From: a virus
IMG/VR virus record: IMGVR_UViG_3300008448_000036
Location: 1 to 64,000 of that record
Strand: one strand, 5' to 3'
DNA length: 64,000 nt
Numbering within the stretch: the stretch's first letter is position 1; the number at the start of each line of letters is the position of its first letter. Positions 3,172 through 64,000 of this stretch are shown here, piece by piece. The notes beneath the pieces were generated by a model, which did no database searches, was not told where the DNA came from, and was given only the letters and a program-made list of their open reading frames with translations. The position numbers and the translations under genes are program-made.

Positions 3172-3504
3172 CTATCCTCTTGTTTTTTCGTATTCTAAAT
3201 ATTCTGCCACTGTCTCTATAGCTTCTGTAGCAACTGCAATTTTCTCTTGAACCCAAGGTTCTAAATCATCTTCATCATTTACTAACTTAGATAGCATTGA
3301 GGCGTGTTTCATTAAGTTATAAACATTACTTCTAGCCATACGACCATCTGAGTCGTAGCTTTCTTTATCGGAGTCTCCTAATTTTAGTTTTACTACACCA
3401 CCTCCAGTGAATGGCATATCTCCACTTAACATTCCCATATCTGCCATACATTCTTGTATTTCTTCAGATATAATCTTTTTTAAAGATTCTTTGGTTATTT
3501 TCAT
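3172..3504 (-). CDS. Tagged small helical protein (110 aa)
   Basis: The N-terminus MKITKESLKKIISEEIQE is the clearest copy of a tag shared with four or five other proteins of the window. The rest is helical and acidic, with the segment ARSNVYNLMKHASMLSKLV followed by LEPWVQEKIAVATEAI. I associate that module with accessory proteins of marine T4-like phages, but no function is known to me. It is spaced one base from the HAD gene and nine from the kinase fusion, so all are co-transcribed. Confidence 0.7.
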   Translation of the reverse strand: MKITKESLKKIISEEIQECMADMGMLSGDMPFTGGGVVKLKLGDSDKESYDSDGRMARSNVYNLMKHASMLSKLVNDEDDLEPWVQEKIAVATEAIETVAEYLEYEKTRG

Positions 3505-5537: not shown

Positions 5538-6158
5538 CTAACCTCCAACTTTAACTTTCATAATCAAGAAGCCGTCTTTAACCTCTGAACTAACAGTACT
5601 TGCTTTTCCGCTTGATACTCTGGATCCACCAACATCTCTACCTCTTACCGCATCAACAGCCATAGCTCTTGCGTCCATTTGAGCAGACTCTAATCCCATG
5701 CTGCCACCTCTTACAGGAACTTTTACGGTTACTACATTTCCATCTACCTTAAGGACTTCACCTCTTCCAGCTTTTTTGGCAGGGGCTGATGGTTTGACAG
5801 AGCCAGCATCAGATCCTAAATCTGCTCCTGATGTTGGTTTTACACCAACTGTTACAAATTTTCCTGGGCCGTATCTACTATCTAGTAGATCGTTCATAAC
5901 ATCTCTAACTTCGGAAGCGTTTGCACCTAAATCATCAACAACAATTGAACGAGTAGATCCATCTTTAACATTCTTGACGGTTACTTTTACTGGTTCTGCT
6001 TCTGCTGTATTGGCAGCACCGTAACCCATGCTCATAAGAGCGCCAGCAAACAATGCTGCGATGTTTTGTTTTAAACCTTCGAATAGTTCTTCTTGCTCCA
6101 ACTCTTTTTTAATTTCTTCTGATACAATTTGATTGAGTTTTGATACTGTAATTTTCAT
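5538..6158 (-). CDS. Tagged Gly/Val-rich protein (206 aa)
   Basis: It begins with the tag MKITVSKLNQIVSEEIKKEL and has an LFEG site (about residues 25-28) that fits an (L/I)-x-E protease cut. A moderately hydrophobic stretch follows (NIAALFAGALMSMGYGAA), which could be a membrane or signal-like segment. The rest is beta-rich and Ser/Gly/Val/Lys-rich, with a Pro/Ala linker near the middle. No family is recognised. I suspect a virion-packaged protein. Confidence 0.65.
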   Translation of the reverse strand: MKITVSKLNQIVSEEIKKELEQEELFEGLKQNIAALFAGALMSMGYGAANTAEAEPVKVTVKNVKDGSTRSIVVDDLGANASEVRDVMNDLLDSRYGPGKFVTVGVKPTSGADLGSDAGSVKPSAPAKKAGRGEVLKVDGNVVTVKVPVRGGSMGLESAQMDARAMAVDAVRGRDVGGSRVSSGKASTVSSEVKDGFLIMKVKVGG

Positions 6159-6167
6159 TTTTTTCTC

Positions 6168-6533
6168 CTACTGTAAGGTTAATAAGTACTTTAGTTTGTT
6201 AACTTCTGCTAACATTTCATCTCTTATATTCATAAGATCACTATCGCAACTAGGATCTAGTATAGCACTGATTCCAATTAACATTTCACAACATGCGTTA
6301 CAAAATTCTATTGGTTTTAATTCTTGTAAATTTTTTAACTCCAAACTACAAGATTCATCTAAAATAAATCTATCATGTTTTCCCATGCATATTTCAACAT
6401 ATTTGTCTATAAGGCCACTTAATGTATCATAAGTAGCACCAAAAGCTTGGTGACGAGCATAAGATTTTGTTTGCCAATGAAATATTCTTAACTGCTGTTC
6501 CATTTGTATAAGTGAAATAATTATCTTATCCAT
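6168..6533 (-). CDS. Dps/ferritin-like fold protein (121 aa)
   Basis: The segment RIFHWQTKSYARHQAFGATY followed by DTLSGLIDKYVE matches the first helix pair of Dps/ferritin-like proteins (HWxxxxxxxHxxxxxxYxxLxxxxDxxxE). The chain is all helical and shorter than Dps (about 160 aa), and its Cys-rich centre (CNACCEM) is unusual. Phage ferritin-like proteins of this size are known, but whether this one binds iron is not clear. Its stop overlaps the start of the gene at 6533-7552 in transcription order. Confidence 0.6.
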   Translation of the reverse strand: MDKIIISLIQMEQQLRIFHWQTKSYARHQAFGATYDTLSGLIDKYVEICMGKHDRFILDESCSLELKNLQELKPIEFCNACCEMLIGISAILDPSCDSDLMNIRDEMLAEVNKLKYLLTLQ

Positions 6534-7552
6534 TAAAAATCCCCTGTTTCAGAACCATATTTATCTTTATCTGCCATATCTTGCAATTCTAGCTCTTCTG
6601 CATATTCAGGAATTTCTTTTGCTAGTGCTTGCTTGTATTCTTCTACTGACATATTTTCAAATTCTGCCTCGGAAGGTAAAAATCCATAAATTTGAGGGTA
6701 TTCATCTGCAAATCTACTTTCAACATCATCATAAATATTTTCTTTCTCTCGCTGTTTTTTTTGAAAATCTGTAATTTCGGATATTTTTTGCTCTATAAGA
6801 GTTCTTATATACTTTTTAGTAATTTTTTGTTTATTCTCTTTCATGGAATCAGCTACCTTTTTTAAGCTTGGGACATTATCAACAGAAACCACTTCATCAA
6901 AACCTTCTGCGGCTTGATCAACTTTTTGAAAACTTTTAAACATTCTATCAAATGCAGCTTCTGGGATTGTTTTTGATTTACCTGCTGCTTTTGCTTCGGC
7001 TGCGCGTTTTGCTGCCACACTCTTAATTATATCTTCTGCGCCTTCAAAGTTAAACACCACAGCGACTTTGTGATAATCACTTTCAGACCCTTCAATTGCT
7101 TTTAAAGCTCCTTTTCTAGCTCCTGGAGTCATATTAGTCATATCGACAACAATAACTGGTTGTCCTTTTGCTTCCTGAACTCTGCCATTGAACCTTCCAA
7201 AGACTCTTCCGTTTGCCTCAATAACTTTGTCATAGGCGGTTGGATTAAAGGCTGCATGTGGAGGAGATTTAATCACTGTACCATATTTTTCACTAACATC
7301 TCCCTCTTTAGCATCTGGTGGAGGAAGCATAAACATATCATCATATGTCCATCCATAGTCAGCTGCAATTGCCTCTACAATATCATCTCTATTAATAATA
7401 TATGGATCTTGATTTCCAAAAGTTTTTTGAATCCAAGTAGATTTTCCAACAGATGGTGGACCAACTAAAACGTAAATTTTCTTTTTATCCAATTCTTCAT
7501 TTAGCGTAGAAAACTTCCTCCAGTTTTCCATAATAATTTTCATATTTTTCAT
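6533..7552 (-). CDS. P-loop polynucleotide kinase-like protein with WRxF tag (339 aa)
   Basis: The N-terminal 20 residues include IIMENWRKFSTLNEEL, the clearest copy of the second tag class, with LNE as a possible processing site. A Walker A motif, VGPPSVGKSTW, follows at about residues 30-40, then INRDDIVE and VVDMTNMTPGARKGALK, features of the polynucleotide kinase/zeta-toxin group that phosphorylate 5' ends or small substrates. The C-terminal 80 residues are acidic and helical. It is related to the N-terminal half of the 673-aa fusion at 3514-5535, so the phage carries two such kinases. AGGA precedes the first ATG. Confidence 0.75.
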   Translation of the reverse strand: MKNMKIIMENWRKFSTLNEELDKKKIYVLVGPPSVGKSTWIQKTFGNQDPYIINRDDIVEAIAADYGWTYDDMFMLPPPDAKEGDVSEKYGTVIKSPPHAAFNPTAYDKVIEANGRVFGRFNGRVQEAKGQPVIVVDMTNMTPGARKGALKAIEGSESDYHKVAVVFNFEGAEDIIKSVAAKRAAEAKAAGKSKTIPEAAFDRMFKSFQKVDQAAEGFDEVVSVDNVPSLKKVADSMKENKQKITKKYIRTLIEQKISEITDFQKKQREKENIYDDVESRFADEYPQIYGFLPSEAEFENMSVEEYKQALAKEIPEYAEELELQDMADKDKYGSETGDF

Positions 7553-7576: not shown

Positions 7577-7987
7577 TTACCACTTCCTACATGACCAATA
7601 TCTAGCTTTTGTTCTTGGACCTGGATTAGCGCAGTTATGACGAGCACGAAATGATTTACGACGTTTTGGATTACTTTTTTTAATACGCATATTCTTATCG
7701 CCAAAGTTTACTTTTTTAACGTTTCCGGTTGAAGGGTCGCGTACAAATACTTTAAACTTTTTTACATCTCCCCTCATTGGTTTTCCTAGAGGAACAGTAC
7801 GTCCTTGATACTTTGCTTCTTCAAGTTTATCTGGGCATCCGCATGTTAATTCTTCATATAGACATGCTTCGCAAACAAGAGTGCCGTCTTCTAAGGTAGA
7901 ATCATTATTGCCTAGTTGTTCAACAATTAATGCTTCATGGATGCTTTCTTTTACGACTTTTCTTAAGTCTGATTGTGAAATTTTCAT
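7577..7987 (-). CDS. Tagged Cys/Lys/Arg-rich protein (136 aa)
   Basis: The start MKISQSDLRKVVKESIHEAL is a copy of the MKIT tag and is followed by LIVEQ, a potential (L/I)-x-E cut. Then comes a Cys cluster (CEACLYEELTCGCP), probably metal binding, and a very basic C-terminal domain (KKSNPKRRKSFRARHNC, RTKARYWSCRKW). I know this basic domain from other T4-like aquatic phages as an uncharacterised conserved module; DNA or RNA binding is likely from its charge. Its ATG overlaps the stop of the gene at 7984-8583. Confidence 0.7.
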   Translation of the reverse strand: MKISQSDLRKVVKESIHEALIVEQLGNNDSTLEDGTLVCEACLYEELTCGCPDKLEEAKYQGRTVPLGKPMRGDVKKFKVFVRDPSTGNVKKVNFGDKNMRIKKSNPKRRKSFRARHNCANPGPRTKARYWSCRKW

Positions 7988-12370: not shown

Positions 12371-12841
12371 CTATTTTGAAAAAACTTCTTCTACTGTAGC
12401 ATCTACAGTAAAAGGTTCAATTGATTTCCAATCTTTAATTTTTGCCGCTAAAAACGGCTTTACTGTTTCATCTCTTAACATGGCTGTTATATGAGGCACT
12501 CCACTTTGTACGTACATATCCGTATCAACTTTCCAAGCGGCTATTCCAAGCTTTTCATCTACTCCAAAGGCAACTATCTTTAGTTTAGTTGGTACATTTA
12601 ACTCTATAGGAGTTTTAGATTTATTTGCTGGGGAAGGTACTATAGTCATGTGATGATTTAATTGTTCATTCCCATGAGAACCTACAGAGGAGTCTTTCCA
12701 TCCTTCTACCCTAAGTCCTAATTCATCTAGCTTAGAATTTAAATTTTCTACATCTTGTACAACAGCACCTGTATATAACGCTACTTTAGCATCTTCTTTT
12801 AAGAAATTTCTCCAACCTTCCATTAATTTATCTAAACTCAT
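12371..12841 (-). CDS. 2H phosphoesterase-like protein with WRxF tag (156 aa)
   Basis: The N-terminus SLDKLMEGWRNFLKEDAK carries the second tag class, with FLKE as a possible prohead-protease site. The body contains two H-x-T motifs, NHHMTIVP and GVPHITAML, the signature of the 2H phosphoesterase superfamily (ligT, cyclic phosphodiesterases), which act on 2'-5' or 2',3'-cyclic phosphates of RNA and nucleotides. The size (about 140 aa without the tag) fits the family. I infer an RNA end-healing or anti-defence (cyclic-nucleotide cleaving) role. It precedes groEL in the same operon. Confidence 0.65.
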   Translation of the reverse strand: MSLDKLMEGWRNFLKEDAKVALYTGAVVQDVENLNSKLDELGLRVEGWKDSSVGSHGNEQLNHHMTIVPSPANKSKTPIELNVPTKLKIVAFGVDEKLGIAAWKVDTDMYVQSGVPHITAMLRDETVKPFLAAKIKDWKSIEPFTVDATVEEVFSK

Positions 12842-15882: not shown

Positions 15883-16569
15883 TTAGATTACCTCATCAGC
15901 TATTCCGTATTTCACCGCCTCTTCTGCTGATAAATAGATGTTAACATGCTTTTCAAGCAATTTTTTCATTGTAGTTTGTGTTAATTTAGTTTCTGCAATT
16001 AGGGCATTGATATAGCGATCCTGTGTCCATCTAATTTCATTCATCTCATTTTCCAGACTATGAATTGGTCCTTCACTCCCTCCCAAAACAGAATGTAGCA
16101 TCACTCTACAATTTTTACCGATTTTTCTCTTACCTTTGCTGCCTGCTGCTAATAAAAGAACACCAGCACTCATCACCTTTCCTACTCCGATTGTAGAAAT
16201 ATCAATATCCTTTTTGACTTGACGCATGATATCATAAATTGCAAACATATCACTAGCTGATCCACCGTGTGTGCTAATGTATAATTCAATTGGATCTGGT
16301 TTCTCTTTTTTAGATTTTTTATCCTGTTCTTCGATTTTTGCTTTATTTCTATTTTCATTCCAAATTGTTAAAAGAGCGTATACGATTTCACTACCCTTTT
16401 CTTCGTTTATATCACCAAATAATCCAATACTCTTGATACCTCCCTGAGCATCATCTAGTCCTGGTAACATTATTAAATTCTGTACAGTCTTTTCTGTTGA
16501 GACATCTTCTGATGTCTCTTCGGATTCTACTTCCTTCTTCTTGTTATTTCTGCGGCTTGTAAGACTCAT
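15883..16569 (-). CDS. clpP: ClpP-like serine protease (228 aa)
   Basis: The ClpP/crotonase fold is clear: IELYISTHGGSASDMFAIYD, then GKVMSAGVLLLAAG with nucleophile Ser134, and NCRVMLHSVLGG with catalytic His159. The C-terminus YLSAEEAVKYGIADEVI aligns with the bacterial FLSAxEAxxYGLxD, but the residue matching the catalytic Asp appears to be Asn (HVNIY), which could lower activity. The first 45 residues are a charged extension. Phage ClpP-like enzymes act as partner proteases or prohead maturation proteases; here there is no Clp ATPase nearby. It overlaps the 101-aa gene upstream by one base and is part of an operon. Confidence 0.9.
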   Translation of the reverse strand: MSLTSRRNNKKKEVESEETSEDVSTEKTVQNLIMLPGLDDAQGGIKSIGLFGDINEEKGSEIVYALLTIWNENRNKAKIEEQDKKSKKEKPDPIELYISTHGGSASDMFAIYDIMRQVKKDIDISTIGVGKVMSAGVLLLAAGSKGKRKIGKNCRVMLHSVLGGSEGPIHSLENEMNEIRWTQDRYINALIAETKLTQTTMKKLLEKHVNIYLSAEEAVKYGIADEVI

Positions 16570-30351: not shown

Positions 30352-31380
30352 TTATTTAACAAAAGCCCTTATATTATTCATCAAACTAAAAAATGCTGTT
30401 TTATACTGGGAAGGGTCGCCTGTTACATGTTTCTTTTTTAGTAATGCAGTTACAATATCTTTTAGATGTTGAGCATCAACCTCACCAGTGTATCCAGCTT
30501 TTTTAAGCGCAGCTAATAATTCTGCTTTAGAATGAATAGCTGCTACTGTTTCTCTGCCAGCAAATTTTGCTGCTTCTTGCAAATATTGAGCACTTTGCTC
30601 TGCGGTCGCTTGTGTGGCATCAATTAAACTACCCATTCTGTCTAGAACCTCTGGCGATTTTAGAACCGCATCTGATTTTAAATGTTCATGCATGGCAGTA
30701 AACATATTATTAAATTCTGTCATATCTGACACATCAAATGTTTTCTTTGATCTTATAAATGCATCTAGTTTTTCTACCATCTGAGGAGAAAGATCTACTC
30801 CCATTTTATGCATAGCGGCTTTATTATGTAGTAAGTTTAGCATCGCTTGAGAATCCGATGTTAATCTAACCTTTTCTCCATAATCGCTATAAACAACATC
30901 AGCTTTTGCAGTTCCAACCATAGAATTATATACTAAATATGCTATAGCTGCCCAAAAAGCCACTTTAACAACCAGTGCAACTATACTATAAAGAGTTGGA
31001 TAATTTTGTTTAAATTTTTCAACTAAACTAAAGACTTTTTGTATTAAGCCAAAGACAGCACCTGCACCCTTAATAGCTAATTGTAGCACTTTAATGCCCA
31101 TTTCGTTAATTTTATTAACGACTGCATCTTTTATTCCCTTTAACGCTCCAACAGCTTTTGTTAGGATTCCTTCATTTATAAATTTTAAATCATTTTCTAT
31201 AGATTCTGCTAATATCTTAATATATTCTTCTCTTGAAATTCTGTTTAATGATAATTCTTCATTTAGAACATCTAACTTGAAAGAGCCAAATTTTGTTTCT
31301 AACAATAAATCAGTAGATTTTTTTTCTACATCATTTGAAAAATTTCTCCAATTTTCCATGATAAGCTGCATATCTCTCAT
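30352..31380 (-). CDS. Tagged membrane-segment protein (342 aa)
   Basis: The N-terminus MQLIMENWRNFSNDVEKKS is a clear copy of the WRxF tag. Helices follow, then one transmembrane-like segment (LYSIVALVVKVAFWAAIAYLV, about residues 125-145) and an all-helical C-terminal half rich in Ala, Lys and His. No family is recognised. A tagged, membrane-active virion protein (for example one that enters the host envelope with the DNA) would fit but is not proven. It lies between two hairpin terminators, so it is transcribed on its own. Confidence 0.65.
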   Translation of the reverse strand: MRDMQLIMENWRNFSNDVEKKSTDLLLETKFGSFKLDVLNEELSLNRISREEYIKILAESIENDLKFINEGILTKAVGALKGIKDAVVNKINEMGIKVLQLAIKGAGAVFGLIQKVFSLVEKFKQNYPTLYSIVALVVKVAFWAAIAYLVYNSMVGTAKADVVYSDYGEKVRLTSDSQAMLNLLHNKAAMHKMGVDLSPQMVEKLDAFIRSKKTFDVSDMTEFNNMFTAMHEHLKSDAVLKSPEVLDRMGSLIDATQATAEQSAQYLQEAAKFAGRETVAAIHSKAELLAALKKAGYTGEVDAQHLKDIVTALLKKKHVTGDPSQYKTAFFSLMNNIRAFVK

Positions 31381-31444: not shown

Positions 31445-33304
31445 TTATTTAACTGGGCAAGCACCACCAGCACATTCCATAGAATCTTCTAGTTCACCAT
31501 CACCAATATTTTGGTCGTTAATAGGCTTAATTTTTGCTGATAGTTTCTCGTATTGATCTTTTGTAATGGTTTCTTTTGGAGCTTGTTTGAAACCGTGTTC
31601 GCTATGACATAGGAATGAAATAGTTTTTAGATATTTCAAATTATCATTTAGCCATACCTTTAATTGTTCAATATCTTCACGCTTATAATATACTGTAACT
31701 GACACGGATTGATCTGCCCAGTGTTTTTGGGCCATCTTTACAACATCTAATTGTTTCCAAGTTGTCCAATCTTCATCTGCAACAGGCGCATCGTCTGGTG
31801 CTGCAACATAGAAATCAACAACAAGAGTGTTGTGATCTAAGCTACCGTCGAATCTTACCACAGGCTCCATGTAATGTCCAGCTTCTTTTAGGAGTGGAAT
31901 TAATGAATCATTTGCTGAGAATCGTACACGCTGAATAATATAGCGTGAATATCCTGGATGTACTCCTTCATAGCAATCAAATACCTTAGAAATAGTTCCA
32001 GAAGGCTTAATAACTGTGGTACGAATACTTTCTGGAATTCCTAGTTCGCGTGAATATTTTACGTTCTCGTCTTGGATTGCAGCATATGCACGGTCAAGAA
32101 CATCTGGCGTAAATAATGGGCTTTGTAGGCAACCAGTAATACCAGTTCCAATTCTACGATTACGTTTTACAACCGCATCACATTTAGGCTGATGATATTT
32201 TTCTGTTGTTACACGCTTACCCCAACGGTGCATAAGACGCGCAGCTTCAATAAACTCTTCTTCATTTTTTAGATTGGGAAGAGCAATTTCTTGAAGATTA
32301 CATGGCTCACCATCTTCTAGAGTTGCCTCTGCACATGGATTAACACCAATAGCTGTATCTGGCTTTAGTTCACCCATGCGAGCAAATTTTTGCATATTCT
32401 CACGGTTTACAATACCAAATGGTTCACCTTCTTCATAGGTTTTCCAGAATAGTGGATGTAAATCTTGTGCATCATCTACAACAACTGAGAAGTTAGCCAT
32501 AGCTCTTTGGGTTGGAATATTACCAAGATCCCAGCGTTTAGCCTTTAAGTACTCTTTATCCCAACAATCACCGAGAATAATAATAGCTGAACGACGAACA
32601 TTACCGGCAACGACCATCTCAGCAATTGAACACAAGATATCAGATGCGTCAAGAGGTTTGACGTGTTTTCCGCCTCTGGCGTTGAGAATTCCGCATAGTT
32701 TTTCAACAAACGAGATAAGAGGCTTTGGCCCTGACGAAGAACCTCCGAAACCGCGTATAGGCTCACCAGCAGGACGAATGCATACAGTACTATAGCTAAA
32801 AGACTTACCAGTAACAAAGTATGACTCCAAAATACGACGAGTTAGCTCGTTCCAACCTTCACGACTATCTGGTACAATAAAATCAGCATCGTGAGTGTCT
32901 TTATTGACAATTTGTACTTCTTTCTTAACTTTTGGTAACTTGCTGACATATCTGTGCTCAACAGACATACCAACACCGCCACCTAACATAAGTAGATCTT
33001 GAGCAAGTACAAAATTGGTCCAATCATCACCAGCAACGAACCAACAGTTATTTAATGCAACACCACCGAGCCGCTTATGAGATGGAGCACCTGAATACCA
33101 CCAACCACGACCAGCGGGACCAGCTTTACGTTGCATTAAATAGTATCGTAGACGATTAATTTCTTCTTCGCTTACATTATGACCAACTACATTTCCATGT
33201 ATAACACGTTCTACGGTGTCTTCCCAATTTTCTAACGCGCCATAATCTTTACGTGCGTATGTTCTTTTATATACAACTTTAGCTAGATTGGACCAATTTG
33301 ACAT
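31445..33304 (-). CDS. Adenosylcobalamin-dependent (class II) ribonucleotide reductase, monomeric type (619 aa)
   Basis: The sequence matches monomeric class II ribonucleoside-triphosphate reductase (Lactobacillus leichmannii type). Landmarks are GRGWWYSGAPSHKRLGG, NNCWFV (Cys87 of the substrate-reducing pair), the N-C-E active site VNPCAEATLEDGEPCNLQE (Asn322, Cys324, Glu326, Cys335), and a C-terminal redox pair CAGGACP (Cys611/616). It makes dNTPs and uses cobalamin, so it works without oxygen. At 619 aa it is shorter than the 739-aa bacterial enzyme. The thioredoxin gene lies directly upstream in the same operon and would reduce it. Confidence 0.9.
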   Translation of the reverse strand: MSNWSNLAKVVYKRTYARKDYGALENWEDTVERVIHGNVVGHNVSEEEINRLRYYLMQRKAGPAGRGWWYSGAPSHKRLGGVALNNCWFVAGDDWTNFVLAQDLLMLGGGVGMSVEHRYVSKLPKVKKEVQIVNKDTHDADFIVPDSREGWNELTRRILESYFVTGKSFSYSTVCIRPAGEPIRGFGGSSSGPKPLISFVEKLCGILNARGGKHVKPLDASDILCSIAEMVVAGNVRRSAIIILGDCWDKEYLKAKRWDLGNIPTQRAMANFSVVVDDAQDLHPLFWKTYEEGEPFGIVNRENMQKFARMGELKPDTAIGVNPCAEATLEDGEPCNLQEIALPNLKNEEEFIEAARLMHRWGKRVTTEKYHQPKCDAVVKRNRRIGTGITGCLQSPLFTPDVLDRAYAAIQDENVKYSRELGIPESIRTTVIKPSGTISKVFDCYEGVHPGYSRYIIQRVRFSANDSLIPLLKEAGHYMEPVVRFDGSLDHNTLVVDFYVAAPDDAPVADEDWTTWKQLDVVKMAQKHWADQSVSVTVYYKREDIEQLKVWLNDNLKYLKTISFLCHSEHGFKQAPKETITKDQYEKLSAKIKPINDQNIGDGELEDSMECAGGACPVK

Positions 33305-54759: not shown

Positions 54760-57741
54760 TTAATCGTCAAAAGAAGCGCCAGTATTTGTTAATATAAAGT
54801 CTACTGCGATAAATTCAATTGCTCTAGCAGGTTTTAAGAATACTTTTGCGTATACTATATTTCTATCTATTAGTTCTGGAGTTGTTGTAGTCTCGTCTAA
54901 TGTAACTCTATATTCAGTAATACCAAATCTTGATTGAATTCCATTTAGGAAAGGCACTACTTCATTTAAGAATCTTGCCCAAGTTGTTGAAAGGTTAGGA
55001 TCAAATAAAATTGAGGTTGCAATTCTGCTAACTTCTTTTTTAACATATATCATCAAACGACGTACATTGATACGATCTAGAGCGGTAGGTGTTGCTTGAA
55101 GTGTCTTTTGTCCAAACACAACAATACCTTCTGCTGGGAAACTTGCGATAGGGTTAATATTAACTTCATATAGTCTATCACGATCTTTAGAAGTTAATTT
55201 ACTCTTAACACCTACTACTGGGAATCCAGCTGCACCATTTGATAATCCACCGCGATTAAATCCTGCTGGTGCAAACCATAATTCAGATGCAGTTTCACTA
55301 CTTCCCATTACACCTAGAGCAACTACAGAAGAAGGAAGTGCTACAAGTGCATTTGCTGCTGTATCTGTTGCTAAAACAGCAGGGAAGAATGTACAACCAT
55401 AAGAGTTATTAATTCCTCTAGATCTCATCTGTAATACAGCTGTGTCTACATCTGGTTTTACTTCAACATTTGCGCTGTTATATGATTCCCAAGAAGACTT
55501 AAAATCTCCTGGGATATCGATAATTGCTAATGCATCACCTCTTTGTTCACATACTTCCATTAATTTATTTGTTAATACTACGTTTTGTACTCCAGGAATT
55601 GTCATAATATTTGTTTCTACAACTTCTGGGTCGCTTACGGAATCAATTGCTACTTTTATAGAATTTACAGCATAGCTTGTTGTTTCATCTTTATCAGTAC
55701 CAGAATATGCTCCTAATGGTCTTCCGCTTCCTTCAGAAAATGGTTCTTTTTCTGTAATATCAAATCCATTAAATCCTCCAAATAGAGGCATTGTAAATCT
55801 TGCAACTCTTTGGAAGTTTGTTCCACCGAGACCATATTGTGCTCCTGAGCCGGTTAAGAATCCATTTTTTGCTGTTACAGAAGAACCAGCTAGGCGGCTT
55901 CCTACTGCCCAATATGCTGTATTTAAATTGGAACCAGTAACTTCATCTGAGCCTGTGTTAGAAGGACTATTTTTAAATTTAACGTCATCTAGAGAGAATA
56001 ATGTTGAATAGGTTAATAATCCAGAAGTATCCTCATTGATATTTTGTGGATTAACTCTAACGATATCTGTAAATTGTTGGTCAAATAATTTTGTGCTACC
56101 AATCTTGGTCTTTAGACCGAAAAATACTCTGTCAATAGAAGTTGCAGAAGAGTCAACAGTTGAGTCTTCAACAAATGGTAATTCTGGGAATGCTAAACTT
56201 GCTGTATAAACAGCGTTTCCACTGATTGATGTTGCAGATGTTAATAGTGAGTTAAAGAACACAGTATTCATAAATACTGGGCCTGCTGAAGATGTAGCAA
56301 CACTGTGTGTTCCGGTTCCAGATCCAGATACTAAGATTGTATTAAATTTCTTAGGACCATAGAAACCAAATGGTAGTAAGTCCGCTAAATCATCACCAGC
56401 GCCTGCATCAATAGCACCATCTACTTCTACACGAACAAATTTTGATAGATTTTGATAAGTTCCGTATTCAATAAACATTTTCTTATCATAATCCCAAGTA
56501 GAATAAACATCACCAATTCTTTTAGCGATATAATTTGGAGATACTGGGTTAAGGTTTACATTAGAAAATACTTCTAATGGTTGCATATTTTGATCATCAT
56601 CATCAACCTTGCGGATCATTACAGTAAATGTACCATATTTTTCATATCTAGTAGGAGATGGTTTAATATCTGTAATTGAAGTTTTGATATTATTTTGATT
56701 CCATTCACCTTCAGAAAGACTTACAAATCTAAATAATTTCTGTACTGGATATTCGCCTCTTGAGTTAGGAACAAAGTCTGTATGTAAACCTTTGTGTTGT
56801 CCAATTACCCATCCTGAGTTGGAAGATGCTGCATTTTGTCTAAAATTACCACCATCTTTTGCGATAGAATCTGTATCTGTACCTTTTAATGCTACAATTG
56901 TTGCTGCATAGCTTTGATTGGTTCCAGCAGAAGCAGTTACTTGTCTAGTAACAAATGTTTCAAAAGATTCACCTAGGAAGTAATCTTTTTTATTACTTGT
57001 AGAGTTAATAGCAGAATTTATGGATGCTGGATTTGTGTTAAATACGTTTCTAATAAATTTCTTACTTGATGGATCAAAATTAAAGTTTGTAGTTGTTGTA
57101 GCTCCAGCACTGTCAACAACTCTTAGTTTAAACTCCATATTGCCATGAACAGAAGAACGTACCCAAGTTGCACCGCTACCTGTAATACTTTCAGATGATC
57201 CTGAAAGAGGAGAACCAACTAAACCAACAGTTCCGTAGTTAACATAAAATACAGCTGCTAAAGCACCAGTTGTAGGTGGCATTGCATAAGTATTAGCAGA
57301 AGATGATGTTATACTTGTTACAAATAAACCATAAGCGCCTGCATTTGCAGCAGCAGTTGTAATTGATGTTGGTAGAGCGTTAATTTGCCATCCAGCAAAA
57401 CCAGTAGACGATGCATATTTATTTTGGAATCCACCCAATCTTACGAATGTTACAGGCCCATTAAAAGCTAAATATGCTTTTGCAGCATACGCACCATATG
57501 CTGGTGCTTGTGTTACTGCGGCTCTCCAAACATCTCCATTATAACCACCTGGATTTGGCTCACCAAATACTTCAACAAAGTCTGCGTAAGAATCAACCCT
57601 AATAGGTCTCATCATTGGTCCCTTCACGGAACGACCAATAATAGTTGGACCCATTGCTGGTGCTTCGGTTGGTGTTCTAGATTTATCTATTTCTTTTACA
57701 TATACACCAGGTGATACAAATTTAAATCTTGAGATGGACAT
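54760..57741 (-). CDS. Tail sheath protein, gp18-like (993 aa)
   Basis: The N-terminus FVSPGVYVKEIDKSRTP and the C-terminus VVPFLNGIQSRFGITEYRVT, INVRRLMIYVKKEVSRIATSI are the classic sheath signatures. At 993 aa it is larger than T4 gp18 (659 aa), with extra Ser/Thr/Gly-rich segments in the middle that probably form surface domains. It contracts to drive the tube into the host envelope. The gene has a promoter-like region before it (57782-57809) and follows the 167-aa connector gene. Confidence 0.95.
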   Translation of the reverse strand: MSISRFKFVSPGVYVKEIDKSRTPTEAPAMGPTIIGRSVKGPMMRPIRVDSYADFVEVFGEPNPGGYNGDVWRAAVTQAPAYGAYAAKAYLAFNGPVTFVRLGGFQNKYASSTGFAGWQINALPTSITTAAANAGAYGLFVTSITSSSANTYAMPPTTGALAAVFYVNYGTVGLVGSPLSGSSESITGSGATWVRSSVHGNMEFKLRVVDSAGATTTTNFNFDPSSKKFIRNVFNTNPASINSAINSTSNKKDYFLGESFETFVTRQVTASAGTNQSYAATIVALKGTDTDSIAKDGGNFRQNAASSNSGWVIGQHKGLHTDFVPNSRGEYPVQKLFRFVSLSEGEWNQNNIKTSITDIKPSPTRYEKYGTFTVMIRKVDDDDQNMQPLEVFSNVNLNPVSPNYIAKRIGDVYSTWDYDKKMFIEYGTYQNLSKFVRVEVDGAIDAGAGDDLADLLPFGFYGPKKFNTILVSGSGTGTHSVATSSAGPVFMNTVFFNSLLTSATSISGNAVYTASLAFPELPFVEDSTVDSSATSIDRVFFGLKTKIGSTKLFDQQFTDIVRVNPQNINEDTSGLLTYSTLFSLDDVKFKNSPSNTGSDEVTGSNLNTAYWAVGSRLAGSSVTAKNGFLTGSGAQYGLGGTNFQRVARFTMPLFGGFNGFDITEKEPFSEGSGRPLGAYSGTDKDETTSYAVNSIKVAIDSVSDPEVVETNIMTIPGVQNVVLTNKLMEVCEQRGDALAIIDIPGDFKSSWESYNSANVEVKPDVDTAVLQMRSRGINNSYGCTFFPAVLATDTAANALVALPSSVVALGVMGSSETASELWFAPAGFNRGGLSNGAAGFPVVGVKSKLTSKDRDRLYEVNINPIASFPAEGIVVFGQKTLQATPTALDRINVRRLMIYVKKEVSRIATSILFDPNLSTTWARFLNEVVPFLNGIQSRFGITEYRVTLDETTTTPELIDRNIVYAKVFLKPARAIEFIAVDFILTNTGASFDD

Positions 57742-57816: not shown

Positions 57817-58320
57817 TTATTTTGCATTAAACACATTCTCTCTTGCTCTAATACACTTAGCATCAATTTGAAAAGAGGTATCTTGACCGAATAAAACTCT
57901 AGACTCATTTAGTGTTACTATTTCGTAGTATAAACCATCATATAGAAGAAAATCTCCTTCTCTTACATATAAATCTTGATCTTCTACTAATCTACGTTTA
58001 TGAAATTTAACAGTTAATGATATTCTTCTATCGATACCAAATGAATCTAAATTTGTTCCTGAACCTTCCCAAGTTACTAATACAAATACCCTAACAGGCG
58101 AAAGAAATGTTTTTTGCATTGCTTCACCATATACTGGGTGGTAATATGTATTTTCTCTGCTAATTGGATAATATATAATTTCTTGACCTATAACTCTTTC
58201 CAGAAGTTCATCATTTACCTGTTTTACTAAATTTCTTTCTTTCTGCCCAAGAAATAAAGGTGGGGGAGGTGAATCTGGTGGTATTTCTACTAAATTTTCT
58301 TCTTTCTTTTTTCTAGCCAT
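57817..58320 (-). CDS. Head-tail connector candidate (167 aa)
   Basis: After a basic, Pro-rich start (ARKKKEENLVEIPPDSPPPP) comes a beta-rich domain (IIYYPISRENTYYHPVYGEA, VFVLVTWEGSG) and the strand pair DFLLYDGLYYEIVTLNE, RVLFGQDTSFQIDAKCIR. Proteins of this kind, between the capsid and sheath genes, are usually neck, head-closure or tail-terminator proteins. The assignment is by size, strand pattern and place, not by a known motif. Confidence 0.6.
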   Translation of the reverse strand: MARKKKEENLVEIPPDSPPPPLFLGQKERNLVKQVNDELLERVIGQEIIYYPISRENTYYHPVYGEAMQKTFLSPVRVFVLVTWEGSGTNLDSFGIDRRISLTVKFHKRRLVEDQDLYVREGDFLLYDGLYYEIVTLNESRVLFGQDTSFQIDAKCIRARENVFNAK

Positions 58321-58322
58321 CT

Positions 58323-59561
58323 TTATACTCCCAATTTATCTATAGCATCTTGAATAATTTGATTATGATCAAAAGCTAATTTGGTTGATAAGGCTTTTTC
58401 TACTGAAACCCATCCCGCTTCTTCTGCGTCATCTCTTCCCGCTACTTTTTGATTAATATCTTCCGGTAATAAAACTGCAAATGCAGTAGTTCTTGACCAA
58501 GATTCTTCGTTATCTCTAGGATCCCTATTATTTCCTTCGTATTTTCCAACTTGGATCATCGATCTATTTAAAGAAGGAATATATAAACCAGTTTCTTCTG
58601 TTAATTCTCTAAAAGCTGCTTGTCTAGCAGACTCTCTATCATCTTTCCATTGTTTTCCTTTGGGCTGATTTGTGTCATGAAAACCACCAGGTAATGCATA
58701 AAATCCTGGATACGCTTTACTTGAGGTATTTCTTTTTATTAGTAATATCTTTAGAGTATCGTCAAATTTTTTAAATACAGCTATATCGACAGTTGGATTA
58801 GCACCTGGTCTCCAGAATGGCTGTTCATCACTTCCCCAATATTCTACAGGTTTAGATATTTGACCATATGATCTATTCATATACCTTCCAATTAATTCGT
58901 AGGAAGAAGGGACTAAAAATACTGCCTGTGAAGACTGTAAAATATGAATATTTGAACCTTTATCAACTACAGCATCGTATCCCATATCTCTTAAAATTTT
59001 ATTCCATATAATAGTAGATCTTTTTGTATATTGACCAACTCTAGATTGATCTGTTTCTGCTATCGCTTGAGATACCCCCCAAATTTCTGATGCTTGATTG
59101 TCATATTTATAAAGATCTGCATTTTGTTTAACATCTTCTACAAACTCTTCAAAATTTTTTCCCACCTTCTTCTTTATACTCTTTTCATATACATCTTTTA
59201 AGAAGTTTATATCTTTTGAATAATTTGCATAAGACGATAAATTTAACACTCTATCTGTATTTAATCTTATTAGATTAACATATTTTCTATCATCTCCAAA
59301 AAAACGATCTCCAGATACCCAATCTTGCCATAAATCTTTTAAATTATAAGCATAAACGCCAATTGGAGTTGAAAATCTATTATTTGGGTTAACACCTATT
59401 TTTTCTAAATCTGTAAAACTGACAAAATAATTATCATCATCAGAAAATCTTTCTAGCCTCTTTAAAATAGGGATATTTACATTCTCTGGCCTCTTTTTCT
59501 TTTCTGTAAGAAAATTTCTCCAATTAGAAAATAAATCATAAACTTGTTTTTCTTTAGTCAT
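58323..59561 (-). CDS. ADP-ribosyltransferase-like / NUDIX hydrolase fusion (412 aa)
   Basis: The N-terminus DLFSNWRNFLTEKKK carries the WRxF tag and an FLTE site. The first 220 residues resemble an ADP-ribosyltransferase-like fold (FVSFTDLEKIGVNPNNRFST, PIGVYAYNLKDLW, then MGYDAVVDKGSNIHILQSSQ AVFLVP). The C-terminal 150 residues are a NUDIX hydrolase, with the Nudix box ESARQAAFRELTEETGL and GFYALPGGFHDTN. The two activities act on NAD/ADP-ribose chemistry. T4 packages an ADP-ribosyltransferase (Alt) in its capsid, and the tag here suggests the same. The gene lies between the neck and capsid genes. Confidence 0.65.
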   Translation of the reverse strand: MTKEKQVYDLFSNWRNFLTEKKKRPENVNIPILKRLERFSDDDNYFVSFTDLEKIGVNPNNRFSTPIGVYAYNLKDLWQDWVSGDRFFGDDRKYVNLIRLNTDRVLNLSSYANYSKDINFLKDVYEKSIKKKVGKNFEEFVEDVKQNADLYKYDNQASEIWGVSQAIAETDQSRVGQYTKRSTIIWNKILRDMGYDAVVDKGSNIHILQSSQAVFLVPSSYELIGRYMNRSYGQISKPVEYWGSDEQPFWRPGANPTVDIAVFKKFDDTLKILLIKRNTSSKAYPGFYALPGGFHDTNQPKGKQWKDDRESARQAAFRELTEETGLYIPSLNRSMIQVGKYEGNNRDPRDNEESWSRTTAFAVLLPEDINQKVAGRDDAEEAGWVSVEKALSTKLAFDHNQIIQDAIDKLGV

Positions 59562-59564
59562 TTT

Positions 59565-60836
59565 TTAACCTACAAATATTAAGTTTGGAATAAAAGTGTT
59601 AACTTTCTGAGCGTCTTCTGCTATCTTAGCGTTGTCTTCACCGAGTTTAGCATAAGTCATCTCCGCTAGTTGAGTTTTTAATTCTTCTCTTAAATCTTTT
59701 TGTTCCTCTTTACCTTCTGCAATTAATTTATCGCCATTTAAAGTTACGCTTTCTCCTGGAATTGGTATAGTACCAAATTTACTTCTAACTTGTCCTAGCA
59801 TTTCTTTGGAGATAGCTAAGGCAAATCTACGGATCCATTGTTTTCCAATCGAATTAATTTTATCATATGGTAAGTTTTCAAATGGTAAAGTATTCATATT
59901 ATTGATTCCATCTACATTAGTAGTAGAATTACTCTCTCCAGAATCCCAACCATTTTGCTCTATAGTAAATTCAAACCAAAAACGATTTGCACTGGATGCC
60001 TGTGGTACTGGAAATAATCTAAGGACGTTATTTCTTAGTTGATATGACCAGTCGCTAACTCTAGTTTTTATTGCATCTTTATAAGCCATGGCCTGTAATT
60101 TATTTTGCCACACTGGAATTATCTCAAATGTACTGTCATCTGCATATTGTCCATAAGTTGAAAGATTTCCTACTACGTTTAATCCTCCGAAATATCCATA
60201 AAAATTCCAAGATGCTCCAGCTGTTTTATAATACACTTTTCGTATATTTATACTTTTTCCCTCAATATCCCATCCATATTCATCAGCAGAAGAACTTACT
60301 GCATTTATTAGATCATAGTCTTGCTGCCCAGGATTTATATCAAAAGAAGCAGAATATATTGGCTGACCGCTGTTTAGTAATGCCTCTGTTGCTGTAAATA
60401 ATCCAACATTTTTTGCATATCCTAAACTAAATTTTGGTAATTTTAGGCTGATATTATCGGGTAAATCTGAACCAGTTAATTGACCATTGTTATCAAATGT
60501 ACCCGTAGCTTGACCTATCAAAAATGGTAATGCATTTTTAGATTGATGTAAGTTTATTAAATAAGAGTATTCTAAACATGCTTCTTCATACGCAGCATGT
60601 ACTTGTGTTTCCACTAACTCAATATCTAATATGTCTCCACCTAGTTTTTTATATACATACGATACCTGTTCGGCAGATCCACTTTTATATAAACTAATCT
60701 GAGAAGAATTCCAATAATCAGAATTTACATAAATGCCAAAAGGAAGTGTTTGTGAAGTTACATTTGAAATACTACCAGTAGATGGTAAAATTACTTTACT
60801 CATCATTGATACTGGTGTTAAAGTTGGTAATGACAT
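59565..60836 (-). CDS. Neck or head-completion protein candidate (423 aa)
   Basis: No named family is recognised with confidence. The protein is mixed alpha/beta with QVHAAYEEACLEYSYLINLHQ in the first half, NNVLRLFPVPQASSANRFWF in the middle and an acidic helical C-terminus (EEQKDLREELKTQLAEMTYA). Its place directly after the major capsid protein is that of T4 neck proteins gp13/gp14. The ATG has GAGGAAAT upstream. Confidence 0.55.
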   Translation of the reverse strand: MSLPTLTPVSMMSKVILPSTGSISNVTSQTLPFGIYVNSDYWNSSQISLYKSGSAEQVSYVYKKLGGDILDIELVETQVHAAYEEACLEYSYLINLHQSKNALPFLIGQATGTFDNNGQLTGSDLPDNISLKLPKFSLGYAKNVGLFTATEALLNSGQPIYSASFDINPGQQDYDLINAVSSSADEYGWDIEGKSINIRKVYYKTAGASWNFYGYFGGLNVVGNLSTYGQYADDSTFEIIPVWQNKLQAMAYKDAIKTRVSDWSYQLRNNVLRLFPVPQASSANRFWFEFTIEQNGWDSGESNSTTNVDGINNMNTLPFENLPYDKINSIGKQWIRRFALAISKEMLGQVRSKFGTIPIPGESVTLNGDKLIAEGKEEQKDLREELKTQLAEMTYAKLGEDNAKIAEDAQKVNTFIPNLIFVG

Positions 60837-60953: not shown

Positions 60954-62753
60954 TTAGCCTTGTAGATCTTGTACAACAACTAGGCCGTACATGTCTGGAC
61001 GAACCATTGCTTTACCATAACGAGTCATAACAGCTTTGCGTGGTGCAAAAGTGTTTGGATCGAAGATGGTTGGGGTGCTTTGTAGTGGTACATATGGAGC
61101 ATAAACATAACCACTTTCTAGGAAGCTTCCACCTTTACGTCCTACTAAGATTACGTTACGTAGGAAGTATGGATGAACAATGATATCCCATTTCTTGTTT
61201 AGATCACCTACTTTAACAGCACCTACTGAACCTTTTTCATCAGTTGCAGTTACTGAAGCGCGGAATCCAGAAGTAAATTCTAGGATGTTTGCAACTTCTG
61301 GTCCGCAGACTAAGAAGTTAGCACCACCACGTAGAGTTTTACGGTGGATAGCTGCTGATACGTCGTTGATTGTTTCAACTAGGGTTTCATACCACATTGA
61401 AACGTTACCGGTGAAGTCTGGTGGTCCTGCATATGAATTAGCAGTACCAACTTCGGCACCAGAAGAACGATCTAAGAATTTACCTGGACGGCGTGACCAG
61501 TATTTGACACCGGCAGTTTGTCCCTTAACTAGATCGTTTAGAATTTCTTGATCAATTTCTAGACCAATTTGTTCTGATAACATAGAAGTTAATTCAACTT
61601 CAGCATCTAGGTTGTGGTAAGCATTTAGATCTTGACCTAATTCTGGAGTCCATGCAGCCTTTAGCTTACGAGTACGAGCTGTAATGCTGAATGAATCTAC
61701 TTTTAGCTCTACTTCTGGGATTGCTGAAGAGCCTTCAAATGTCCATGGAGATGTACCAGCTAATGCACCTAGAGCACTTGCTCCTACGTTAGCTAGATTA
61801 TCTTTAATTGGGAAGGTTACAACAGCTTGTGAAGCACCAGAGAATAGGTTTGCTTTTGTTGGAGAGGTAGAGGTAGTAGCTACTACGAATGATACTGTAC
61901 CAGCTGCCTTGTTTACTGTTGTTAGACGGCGAATTACTTTTGCACTTCCACCTAGAGCACCACCACCTGTGTAATCTCCAGCTGAATCAACTGCAGATGA
62001 ACCAGTTACCAATGATGCAGCAAATACGTCTTGTTCTGCAATCAAAGCAGCGGCTCCACCGCTAAATCCTAGATCAGAAAGATTAAATGTTACAACAGAT
62101 GCTGAAACATATGGAGTTGCATCTCCACCAGCTAATAGATCTGCATCATAACGAATTGCAGATAATTGAGCGGCAGTTGCATTTGCTCCCTTGCTTTCTA
62201 GATTGAATGGAGTTGCTACTGTTACGCTAGCAGTTGCAACTGATTTTGACCAACGTGATGTGTTGTAACCGTTAGCTAAGTTGTAGAAACCTTTTTCAGC
62301 ATAATCTACACCATCTACACGTACACCACCAGTGATTTCAACACCTAGACGATCACCGAAGAAAGAGCTAGATGCTGGGAATACAACGTCACCTGTGCTA
62401 CCTACGTTAGTTCCTCTACGGAAGTCCATAAAGAATACTAGACCTGATGGTAAGCTCATTGGTTGTACTGAAACTAGATCATTTGCGATCAAGCCAGCAA
62501 ATACACGACGGACGATTGGGAACGCAACAGCGGCAAAGCCTTGTACGTCACCTGCAGCCATTGTGGTTGCTTCTTTTAGTAATTCAGCAGCTTGGTTTTC
62601 TAACAAGCGTGCCATTGTGCTCTTTTGACGAGCAGATGATAGTCCTTCTAATAGACCACTTTTTTCCCATTTAGAAACTAGAGTTTCAGTTTCTTTTAGT
62701 AGGTTTCTTTCTACCATACCTTCTGTTAATTTTTCTAATACATTATTACCCAT
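60954..62753 (-). CDS. Major capsid protein, gp23-like (599 aa)
   Basis: After an N-terminal propeptide of about 61 residues the mature part has VAFPIVRRVFAGLIANDLVSVQPM and LPSGLVFFMDF, the beginning of the HK97-fold gp23 family. The C-terminus carries GKAMVRPDMYGLVVVQDLQ. LLKEATTMAAGD (58-69) offers a cleavage after Glu61, nearly the same place as in T4 gp23 (after Glu65). The chain is larger than T4 gp23 (521 aa). It has a late-like box GATAAATA before it and a terminator behind. Confidence 0.95.
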   Translation of the reverse strand: MGNNVLEKLTEGMVERNLLKETETLVSKWEKSGLLEGLSSARQKSTMARLLENQAAELLKEATTMAAGDVQGFAAVAFPIVRRVFAGLIANDLVSVQPMSLPSGLVFFMDFRRGTNVGSTGDVVFPASSSFFGDRLGVEITGGVRVDGVDYAEKGFYNLANGYNTSRWSKSVATASVTVATPFNLESKGANATAAQLSAIRYDADLLAGGDATPYVSASVVTFNLSDLGFSGGAAALIAEQDVFAASLVTGSSAVDSAGDYTGGGALGGSAKVIRRLTTVNKAAGTVSFVVATTSTSPTKANLFSGASQAVVTFPIKDNLANVGASALGALAGTSPWTFEGSSAIPEVELKVDSFSITARTRKLKAAWTPELGQDLNAYHNLDAEVELTSMLSEQIGLEIDQEILNDLVKGQTAGVKYWSRRPGKFLDRSSGAEVGTANSYAGPPDFTGNVSMWYETLVETINDVSAAIHRKTLRGGANFLVCGPEVANILEFTSGFRASVTATDEKGSVGAVKVGDLNKKWDIIVHPYFLRNVILVGRKGGSFLESGYVYAPYVPLQSTPTIFDPNTFAPRKAVMTRYGKAMVRPDMYGLVVVQDLQG

Positions 62754-62772: not shown

Positions 62773-62780
62773 TATTTATC
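62773..62780 (-). promoter_or_regulatory. Late-promoter-like box for the major capsid gene
   Basis: The minus strand reads GATAAATA, one base from the T4 late core TATAAATA, 20 bp before the capsid ATG and overlapping the end of the scaffold gene. It would let the capsid gene be transcribed apart from the scaffold. Confidence 0.45.
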
Positions 62781-64000
62781 TAATACCAGCTAACGCTTTC
62801 ATGCGATCTGCCATTAAAGAATCTAAACTCGCTGGTTGTTTAGATCTTGTTAAGAAAGGCGTTGATCCACGATTGATTGCTTCGCTTAGTGATTTTGGTG
62901 TTTTTTCTTTAACACTCTGCACTGTGCTTTGAAGAGTTTCGTAGATTGTTTTTGCCTCTATAACACTTTCAGCCTTAGTAATGTTTTCGACAATTTGAGA
63001 TTTTTGTCGCTCATTCAAGGAGACATTACTTAGAACTTTATTCGTGTACAACAATTTAGCATTTGAAATATTGATCTTATCTAATTGATCCTTTAAACTA
63101 TTAACTGCTTCTAATAATTTTTCGTTTGTAGAGTTTAATGAATCAGTTTTTTCTTTTTCTTTAAGAAGCTTTTTATCCATAATTTTTAAAGATTCTTCTA
63201 AGTCGGAAAGATTCTTTTTAGCATATTCCCTTCTAGAAACTTCTTTATCGCCTCTAGCTTTTGCATAAGCTACTTTTTTGGATTCTCTTTCTTCTCTTTT
63301 ATTTGTTCCCATATATCCATCTGGAACATTTTCCATGTCAACCATTAAAGACTCTTCTAGTTCTAGAAGCTCTTCTTCTGTTAACTCTACTTCTTCGTTT
63401 ACATCGGAAGCAACAGGTGCAGATTCTGCTGGTGATTTTTCACCTTTCTCTTTTGCAATTTTTTCAGCTTCTGCTTTTGCAGCTGCTCTTGCTTTATCAC
63501 TCTGTTGTTGAATTCTTGCTGCCTCTTCTCTTTTTTTAGATGCTTGCATTGATAAATCATCTGCTGCTTTATTAGATGTTTCAACATCTTCATCTAATTC
63601 AAGTTCAAGTTCTAACTCTTCCTCTTCTGCTTGAGATCTATGATAAGAAGTACCAGGATTATCATAACTTTCTTTAAATTTAATTCTTAAAGCCTCAGCC
63701 ATTGGTTGTGGTTCTGCTGCTGGTGCTGGTGCAGTAACCGCAGGAGGAGAGGAAAGCATTGTTACTTGTGAAGTCGATGGTTGTGCTTTTAGCTGATCAA
63801 AATTAATTGTTATTAATTCGTCATCATCTCCATCTAAATTAAAAAAGGCTGTTTTAACATTTTTAAATGGATCTTTTTTATCCATACCAATACCTGTTCC
63901 TGTTGCCATCGGAGTAACTGGTGCAGGAGGAGTTACTGTTGGACCTGTTGGATCCGCAGCATTAGCAGACGCAGTTTCTTGATCAACTTCTGCTGGTGGA
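62776..64000 (-). CDS. Prohead scaffold/core protein, gp22-like (5' partial)
   Basis: The sequence is a highly charged, helical scaffold: acidic stretches (EEEELELELELDEDVE), an Ala/Lys helix, then a long coiled coil in the C-terminal 150 residues (LLKEKEKTDSLNSTNEKLLE, VNSLKDQLDKINISNAKLLY). It ends with GSTPFLTRSKQPASLDSLM. An ATG at 63909 exists, but the frame stays open upstream through a Pro/Ala/Thr-rich stretch to the window edge, so the real start is probably outside. It forms the inner core around which the capsid assembles and is cut out later. Confidence 0.75.
   Translation of the reverse strand, partial: PPAEVDQETASANAADPTGPTVTPPAPVTPMATGTGIGMDKKDPFKNVKTAFFNLDGDDDELITINFDQLKAQPSTSQVTMLSSPPAVTAPAPAAEPQPMAEALRIKFKESYDNPGTSYHRSQAEEEELELELELDEDVETSNKAADDLSMQASKKREEAARIQQQSDKARAAAKAEAEKIAKEKGEKSPAESAPVASDVNEEVELTEEELLELEESLMVDMENVPDGYMGTNKREERESKKVAYAKARGDKEVSRREYAKKNLSDLEESLKIMDKKLLKEKEKTDSLNSTNEKLLEAVNSLKDQLDKINISNAKLLYTNKVLSNVSLNERQKSQIVENITKAESVIEAKTIYETLQSTVQSVKEKTPKSLSEAINRGSTPFLTRSKQPASLDSLMADRMKALAGIR

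What the first reader, a model, noticed from the sequence alone, without database searches (positions are those of the whole stretch)
58323..59561. ADP-ribosyltransferase-like domain fused to a NUDIX hydrolase and tagged for packaging
Seen: a Nudix box (ESARQAAFRELTEETGL) follows a domain with ART-like features, and the N-terminus has the WRxF tag. The gene is among head genes. Known: T4 Alt is a packaged ART that modifies host RNA polymerase. Inference: the phage could inject an enzyme that both places and cleaves ADP-ribose, or whose NUDIX part removes products.
Basis: partly seen in the sequence, partly recalled or inferred. Interest (0 to 1): 0.7.

Follow-up and report, generated by a model that had tools for sequence, protein, structure and literature searches.

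The report
Phage head-packaged ART-fold–NUDIX fusion protein
A large phage carries, among its capsid genes, a protein that joins a divergent ADP-ribosyltransferase-type domain to an ADP-ribose-type NUDIX hydrolase behind a likely head-packaging tag; it resembles an enzyme injected at infection, but its transferase half has lost an acidic residue that nearly all its relatives keep.

Summary
The ORF at 58323-59561 (-), 412 aa, is intact. Residues 256-410 are a NUDIX domain of the ADP-ribose group (NrtR/NadM-like). Residues ~41-230 have the ART-superfamily fold: the AlphaFold2 model (pLDDT 87, pTM 0.80) finds ART-type proteins first. The best PDB match is an ART-like domain inside an ejection protein of cyanophage A4; next come RES toxins and PARPs. 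The best labelled hits in the viral library are ART-PolyVal proteins.

The domain belongs to a large, uncatalogued phage family (about 126 unique members from unbiased searches) whose genes often lie beside terminase, portal, capsid or prohead-protease genes. The WRxF tag is real: 4 occurrences in 59,443 aa of the phage, all within the first 20 residues of a protein. Relatives carry it too. It resembles T4 capsid-targeting sequences.

The family keeps Tyr70, His206, Glu209 and Gln212. The window protein alone has Gln at 209 (115 of 116 have Glu). Across IMG/VR the motif occurs 97 times with Glu and never with Gln, except this gene. So the intact catalytic half is probably the NUDIX; the ART half may be impaired or a binding module. 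No second ART-NUDIX fusion was found. Packaging and activity are untested.

The parts
58323..59561 (-). ART-fold–NUDIX fusion gene, 412 aa
59502..59561 (-). N-terminal tag, aa 1-20 (MTKEKQVYDLFSNWRNFLTE); putative capsid-targeting sequence, possible prohead-protease cut after E20
   Evidence: WRxF found only at protein N-termini in this phage; on ART-family relatives L058, L097 x2 and L260; T4 CTS precedent PMC9026906. Cut site inferred.
58872..59441 (-). ART-superfamily-fold domain, aa 41-230
   Evidence: AF2 model; fold matches; family alignment; blastp to a relative 3e-25
59418..59420 (-). Ser48, first triad position (strand 1); family S/T, His in about 11%
   Evidence: DSSP strand 45-50
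59352..59354 (-). Tyr70, second triad position (strand 2), 123/123 in family
   Evidence: strand 69-73
58935..58937 (-). Gln209 (CAG), where 115 of 116 family members have Glu
58926..58928 (-). Gln212, first residue of the strand that carries the catalytic Glu in PARPs; 114/114 in family
58332..58796 (-). NUDIX domain, aa 256-410, ADP-ribose (NrtR/NadM-Nudix) group
58584..58634 (-). NUDIX box E310-L326 (E-x7-R-E-L-T-E-E-T-G-L), catalytic residues intact
59565..60836 (-). Upstream neighbour: head-tail adaptor (phrog_211)
60954..62753 (-). Major head protein (phrog_138)
62776..63909 (-). Probable scaffold/core protein
   Evidence: position beside the major head protein; no convincing family match
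57817..58320 (-). Downstream neighbour, small protein (neck type by position), recurrent beside ART-family genes
54760..57741 (-). Probable tail sheath
   Evidence: position and sequence

Best explanation
The gene encodes a virion-internal effector. The N-terminal WRNFLTE tag takes it into the prohead core and is probably clipped by the phage's gp21-like protease; the protein enters the host with the DNA. There the NUDIX domain, whose box is intact and whose closest profiles are ADP-ribose-recognising, hydrolyses ADP-ribose or a related NDP-X molecule (free ADP-ribose, an NAD-derived immune signal, or ADP-ribose on macromolecules). The ART-fold domain most likely binds NAD+/ADP-ribose or a host target and presents it to the NUDIX; its own transferase activity is weakened or lost. 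Shown: fusion, fold, family, tag distribution, gene context, Glu-to-Gln change. Inferred: packaging, cleavage, injection, substrate, division of labour.
For: NUDIX: PF00293 1e-12, NrtR 2.7e-18 and NadM-Nudix profiles, PDB relatives 3i9x, 3gz5, 2qjo. ART fold; the top PDB hit 9k3a_B, very probably A-4L ORF27, lies in an ejection-machinery protein and its ART region weakly matches PF18760. Glu209 replaced only here. Tag. Head context. gp21-like prohead protease in the same phage at 953-1558 of the 187-kb contig (identified by sequence motif). In other phages, ART-family genes stand beside separate NUDIX genes on the same strand: L047 5 nt apart, L077 overlapping, L060 third gene downstream. Precedent for packaged ART and NUDIX proteins: PMC9503650.
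Against: No proteomics or biochemistry. The H-Y-[EDQ] ART clade includes members with Gln, so Gln212 may suffice for catalysis. NUDIX substrate cannot be read from sequence with certainty, and NrtR itself is a sensor rather than an enzyme. The adjacent stand-alone NUDIX genes come from only 3-4 lineages and were not tested against a proper chance model.
Confidence: 0.42

Rival explanations
1. Both halves are active: the ART domain transfers ADP-ribose to a host target or cleaves NAD+ using Gln212 (H-Y-[EDQ] clade), and the NUDIX clears free ADP-ribose or trims the modification to phosphoribose.
For: Tyr70, His206 and Gln212 are kept; Gln is a known third residue in one ART clade (PMC9503650); a KptA-NUDIX fusion was read this way in a giant virus.
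Against: Glu209, near-invariant in the family, is lost only in this fusion; P73N and P210S also deviate; His at position 48 is Ser.
Confidence: 0.3
2. The NUDIX acts on other NDP-X compounds such as NAD-capped RNA or dinucleotides, and the ART-fold domain is only a carrier or docking domain for packaging.
For: Phage NUDIX enzymes have broad substrates; this box has an unusual 11-residue insertion, of a kind also seen in a stand-alone NUDIX of a 635-kb phage.
Against: Closest profiles are ADP-ribose-type; the RDPR motif of NadM-Nudix/NrtR is present; conserved pocket residues of the ART domain are mostly kept.
Confidence: 0.15
3. It is a late protein used inside the infected cell or in assembly and is not packaged; the WRxF stretch is an interaction helix for scaffold or neck proteins.
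For: It lies between two neck-type genes; no virion data exist.
Against: The same tag occurs on unrelated proteins outside the head operon (kinase-like, H-x-T protein); relatives carry other CTS-like N-termini ending in LxE-A; the fold relative 9k3a is a virion ejection protein.
Confidence: 0.13

Closest known systems
T4 Alt (packaged ART) and T4 capsid-targeting sequences
   Same: Works like it if the inference holds: an ART-fold protein with an N-terminal propeptide, in a phage with a gp21-like protease.
   Different: No sign of the R-S-E Alt family; single divergent S-Y-Q domain; NUDIX fused; Alt carries no NUDIX (own knowledge).
ART-PolyVal (PF18760)
   Same: Best labelled matches in the viral structure library; the C-terminal motif aligns without gaps after the loop (low probability); both families occur in the same phages.
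   Different: No member of the new family matches PF18760 by sequence; His-Gly-Thr is replaced by S/T/H-[FYM]-T; invariant H..E..QA motif.
Cyanophage A4 (A-4L) ORF27 ejection protein, PDB 9k3a
   Same: Best solved-structure match of the ART domain (Z 8.1, 159 residues), in a virion ejection protein.
   Different: C-terminal part of a 1717-aa protein; motif YHGT...GSGTYFS; no NUDIX.
KptA-NUDIX fusion of Bodo saltans virus; phage NudE fused to head proteins (Iyer et al. 2022, PMC9503650)
   Same: ART-fold plus NUDIX in one polypeptide; NUDIX proposed to be packaged.
   Different: KptA is an RNA-repair ART of the H-H-h clade in a eukaryotic giant virus; here a different ART family in a tailed phage with a packaging-type tag.
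NadM-Nudix and NrtR (COG1051-type NUDIX)
   Same: Closest profiles of the NUDIX half.
   Different: Neither NMN adenylyltransferase nor HTH domain; 11-aa insertion in the box.

Membership tests
ART superfamily | ART fold (split beta-sheet) | tested here: met
   AF2 pLDDT 86.7, pTM 0.80; PDB and viral fold matches mostly ART proteins
ART superfamily | Aromatic/Ser residue on strand 2 (Tyr of H-Y-E) | tested here: met
   Tyr70 on strand 69-73, 123/123 in family
ART superfamily, H-Y-E type | His on strand 1 | tested here: not met
   Ser48; family S 76, T 26, H 13 of 121
ART superfamily, H-Y-E type | Catalytic acid at the third position | tested here: not met
   Gln212 on the strand and Gln209 in the loop; the H-Y-[EDQ] clade allows Gln
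ART superfamily | NAD-dependent transfer or hydrolysis | not testable with these tools
   needs assay
ART-PolyVal PF18760 | Match to the Pfam profile | tested here: not met
   no match in the window protein, 29 family members or G001
NUDIX hydrolases | Box residues E-x7-R-E-U-x-E-E-x-G-U | tested here: met
   aa 310-326
NUDIX hydrolases | G-x5-E spacing at the start of the box | tested here: not met
   11-aa insertion (16 instead of 5 residues); a similar insertion in the LR745206 NUDIX; the Pfam score is still far above cut-off, so the membership of the domain is not in doubt
ADP-ribose NUDIX group (NadM-Nudix/NrtR) | Best profile matches and RDPR motif | tested here: met
   NF050029 2.7e-18, NadM-Nudix 1.6e-8, both below the full-length equivalog cut-offs
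T4-type capsid-targeted internal proteins | Short N-terminal tag shared by otherwise unrelated proteins | tested here: met
   WRxF 4/4 N-terminal in this phage; on relatives
T4-type capsid-targeted internal proteins | Presence in virion and cleavage after Glu by prohead protease | not testable with these tools
   protease gene present by motif; cleavage not shown

The most novel reading that the evidence does not exclude
A phage injects a two-part ADP-ribose trap: an ART-fold domain that has lost transferase catalysis has become a receptor for NAD-derived immune signals or ADP-ribosylated targets and passes them to a fused NUDIX that destroys them, making it a head-packaged counter-defence protein.
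Probability: 0.2. Interest if true: 0.8.

Novelty: new variant of a known kind. Interest (0 to 1): 0.55.

Why it matters
Phage ART and NUDIX proteins have been proposed to be packaged and injected; a single tagged polypeptide with both makes that testable with one protein. The work also outlines an ART-fold family that is absent from Pfam and PHROGs, abundant in large phages and often next to head genes, with a conserved motif (TP.G.Y.Y ... D ... IH..E..QA). The Glu-to-Gln change gives a direct test of which residue the family uses.

Tried and rejected
Sequence profile searches of the ART half (Pfam, PHROGs, PDB) gave nothing usable. The profile found no convincing match in phage N4 or in A-4L by sequence, so identity with the published 'N4-ART' family is unsettled. 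The model of a canonical relative also hits 9k3a first, but its other PDB hits are mixed with helical noise. hhalign against ART-PolyVal gave only a C-terminal alignment with 15% probability; it is used only as support for Q212 matching the catalytic-Glu position. An Escherichia phage hit (H48) is antisense to a capsid gene, taken as chance. Searches for closer relatives or another ART-NUDIX fusion found only the same gene. Macro and NAPRTase genes were not found in the 187-kb contig, and the fusion is its only NUDIX. The family was found in one bacterial MAG only, so a cellular toxin origin was not pursued. The 97 Glu-pattern hits are selected for Glu and are not used in the 115/116 count.

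Full report
What is there. The ORF 58323-59561 on the minus strand codes for 412 residues with an ATG start and no interruption. The same gene, identical in nucleotides, is in three further IMG/VR records, one of them a 187-kb contig of the same phage. The fusion is therefore not an assembly chimera, although all copies are one strain. The window itself lies in an 81.5-kb virus record.

NUDIX half. Residues 258-405 match PF00293 at 1.1e-12. The nearest curated profiles are the ADP-ribose-responsive NrtR (2.7e-18) and NadM-Nudix (1.6e-8), below their full-length cut-offs as expected for a domain. PDB relatives are 3i9x, 3gz5 and 2qjo. The catalytic part of the box, E310-x7-RELTEETGL, is complete. 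An 11-residue insertion separates it from the GG; a stand-alone NUDIX of a 635-kb phage has a similar insertion. It is the only NUDIX match in the 187-kb contig.

ART half. Residues 1-230 match nothing in Pfam or PHROGs beyond chance. A first distant homologue in a 735-kb phage showed the motif TP.G.Y.YP. A DNA pattern for that motif in IMG/VR gave 74 stretches, and further searches brought the set to 126 unique proteins, not selected for the residue at position 209. Direct blastp from the window domain to members reaches 3e-25, so membership of the family is firm. AlphaFold2 on the family alignment gave pLDDT 86.7 and pTM 0.80. In the PDB the first match is 9k3a_B, an ejection-machinery protein of cyanophage A4 (Foldseek 5e-6; Z 8.1, rmsd 4.1 over 159 residues); then RES toxins MbcT, NatT and ParT, PARP4, PARP1, tankyrase and the anti-CRISPR protein 6kyf (AcrIF11; identity from own knowledge) at Z about 5. 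The Z-values below 8 are modest alone, but the rows are nearly all ART proteins. In the viral library the best labelled hits are ART-PolyVal proteins. Chain 9k3a_B is very probably ORF27 of phage A-4L (1717 aa), whose aligned region reads YHGT...GSGTYFS, an ART signature, with a weak PF18760 match. No canonical family member matches PF18760 or any other profile consistently.

Active-site anatomy. In the unbiased set Tyr70 is 123/123, His206 114/116, Glu209 115/116, Gln212 114/114, and position 48 is mostly Ser, Thr or His. The only deviation at 209 is the window protein, with Gln (codon CAG). A pattern scan of all IMG/VR for G[IVM][IVM]H..E..QA[IVM]F gave 97 stretches; the same pattern with Gln gave none; with the window's own spacing the Gln form hits only this gene. 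By topology, Ser48 lies on strand 45-50, Tyr70 on strand 69-73 and Gln212 begins strand 212-215. That makes Gln212 the likely counterpart of the PARP catalytic Glu, with Glu209 in the loop three residues before it; a weak profile alignment to ART-PolyVal agrees. Whichever is the catalytic residue, the window protein has Gln at both. ART clades named H-Y-[EDQ] exist (PMC9503650), so this lowers but does not exclude activity.

Packaging. WRxF occurs four times in 59,443 residues of the phage, always within the first 20 residues of a protein: this fusion, a P-loop kinase-like protein, a protein with two H-x-T motifs and a protein of unknown function. Family members in other phages carry WRRF, WREY, WREF and WRNF at the same place; many others begin with M(K/R)xxE(I/L)xEARRNP, which fits a Glu cleavage site. 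T4 capsid-targeting sequences are the first ten residues of internal proteins and are removed after Glu (PMC9026906). The contig has a gp21-like prohead protease at 953-1558, recognised by its LTGIMQKCDQQNGNGRIYP motif. In the 50.6-kb contig G006 two ART-family genes sit between terminase, portal and prohead protease; across loci the neighbours recur as major head protein, adaptor, terminase, portal and protease. Packaging is thus well motivated but unproven.

Link between ART and NUDIX. In three or four other lineages a separate NUDIX gene stands beside an ART-family gene on the same strand: L047 (5 nt apart), L077 and L209 (overlapping), L060 (third gene downstream). Their N-termini (MRIKEI, MKIKEI) resemble those of neighbouring ART genes. 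This suggests the two functions work together, and that the window phage joined two cargo proteins under one tag. It was not tested against a formal chance model.

Mechanism. The most likely reading is an injected ADP-ribose-handling protein in which the NUDIX is the intact enzyme and the ART fold binds ligand or target. The main rival is a fully active ART plus NUDIX. Iyer and colleagues (PMC9503650) already argued that phage ARTs and NUDIX proteins are packaged, and described a KptA-NUDIX fusion in a giant virus. The new parts here are this ART family, the ART-NUDIX fusion in a tailed phage with a tag, and the Glu-to-Gln change seen in this copy alone.

Noticed in passing
window 12371-12841 (-): WRNFLKE-tagged 156-aa protein with two H-x-T motifs (HHMTI ... 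PHITA), reminiscent of 2H phosphoesterases; no database match.
   Followed up: partly
window 6533-7552 (-) and 3514-5535 (-): Two P-loop kinase-like proteins (AAA_33, polynucleotide-kinase type) with WRKF and FKKWLLEE N-termini; possibly further packaged cargo.
   Followed up: partly
window 30352-31380 (-): WRNF-tagged 342-aa protein of unknown function with a hydrophobic, membrane-like segment.
   Followed up: no
window 3172-3504, 5538-6158, 7577-7987 (-): A second N-terminal motif, MKI(T/S)xxxLxxI(I/V)xEE/ES, on several unrelated proteins; probably another head-targeting tag.
   Followed up: no
window 32664-32854: 191 bases present in the window but absent from the otherwise identical 187-kb contig.
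   Followed up: no
window 15883-16569 (-): ClpP-type protease close to the tagged genes; the phage also has a gp21-like prohead protease.
   Followed up: partly
L060 1494-7247, L136 4988-7736: Arrays of unrelated genes whose products share M(R/K)xxE-type N-termini, including ART-family and NUDIX genes: candidate cargo islands of large phages.
   Followed up: partly
G003, G007, G011, G012 (IMG/VR contigs of 295-561 kb): Phages that carry the new ART family also carry several ART-PolyVal genes.
   Followed up: partly
G001 132971-134548 and 144155-147592: By sequence, the same phage seems to encode a GroEL-like chaperonin and a DnaE/PHP-type DNA polymerase III alpha subunit; not tested with profiles.
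   Followed up: no
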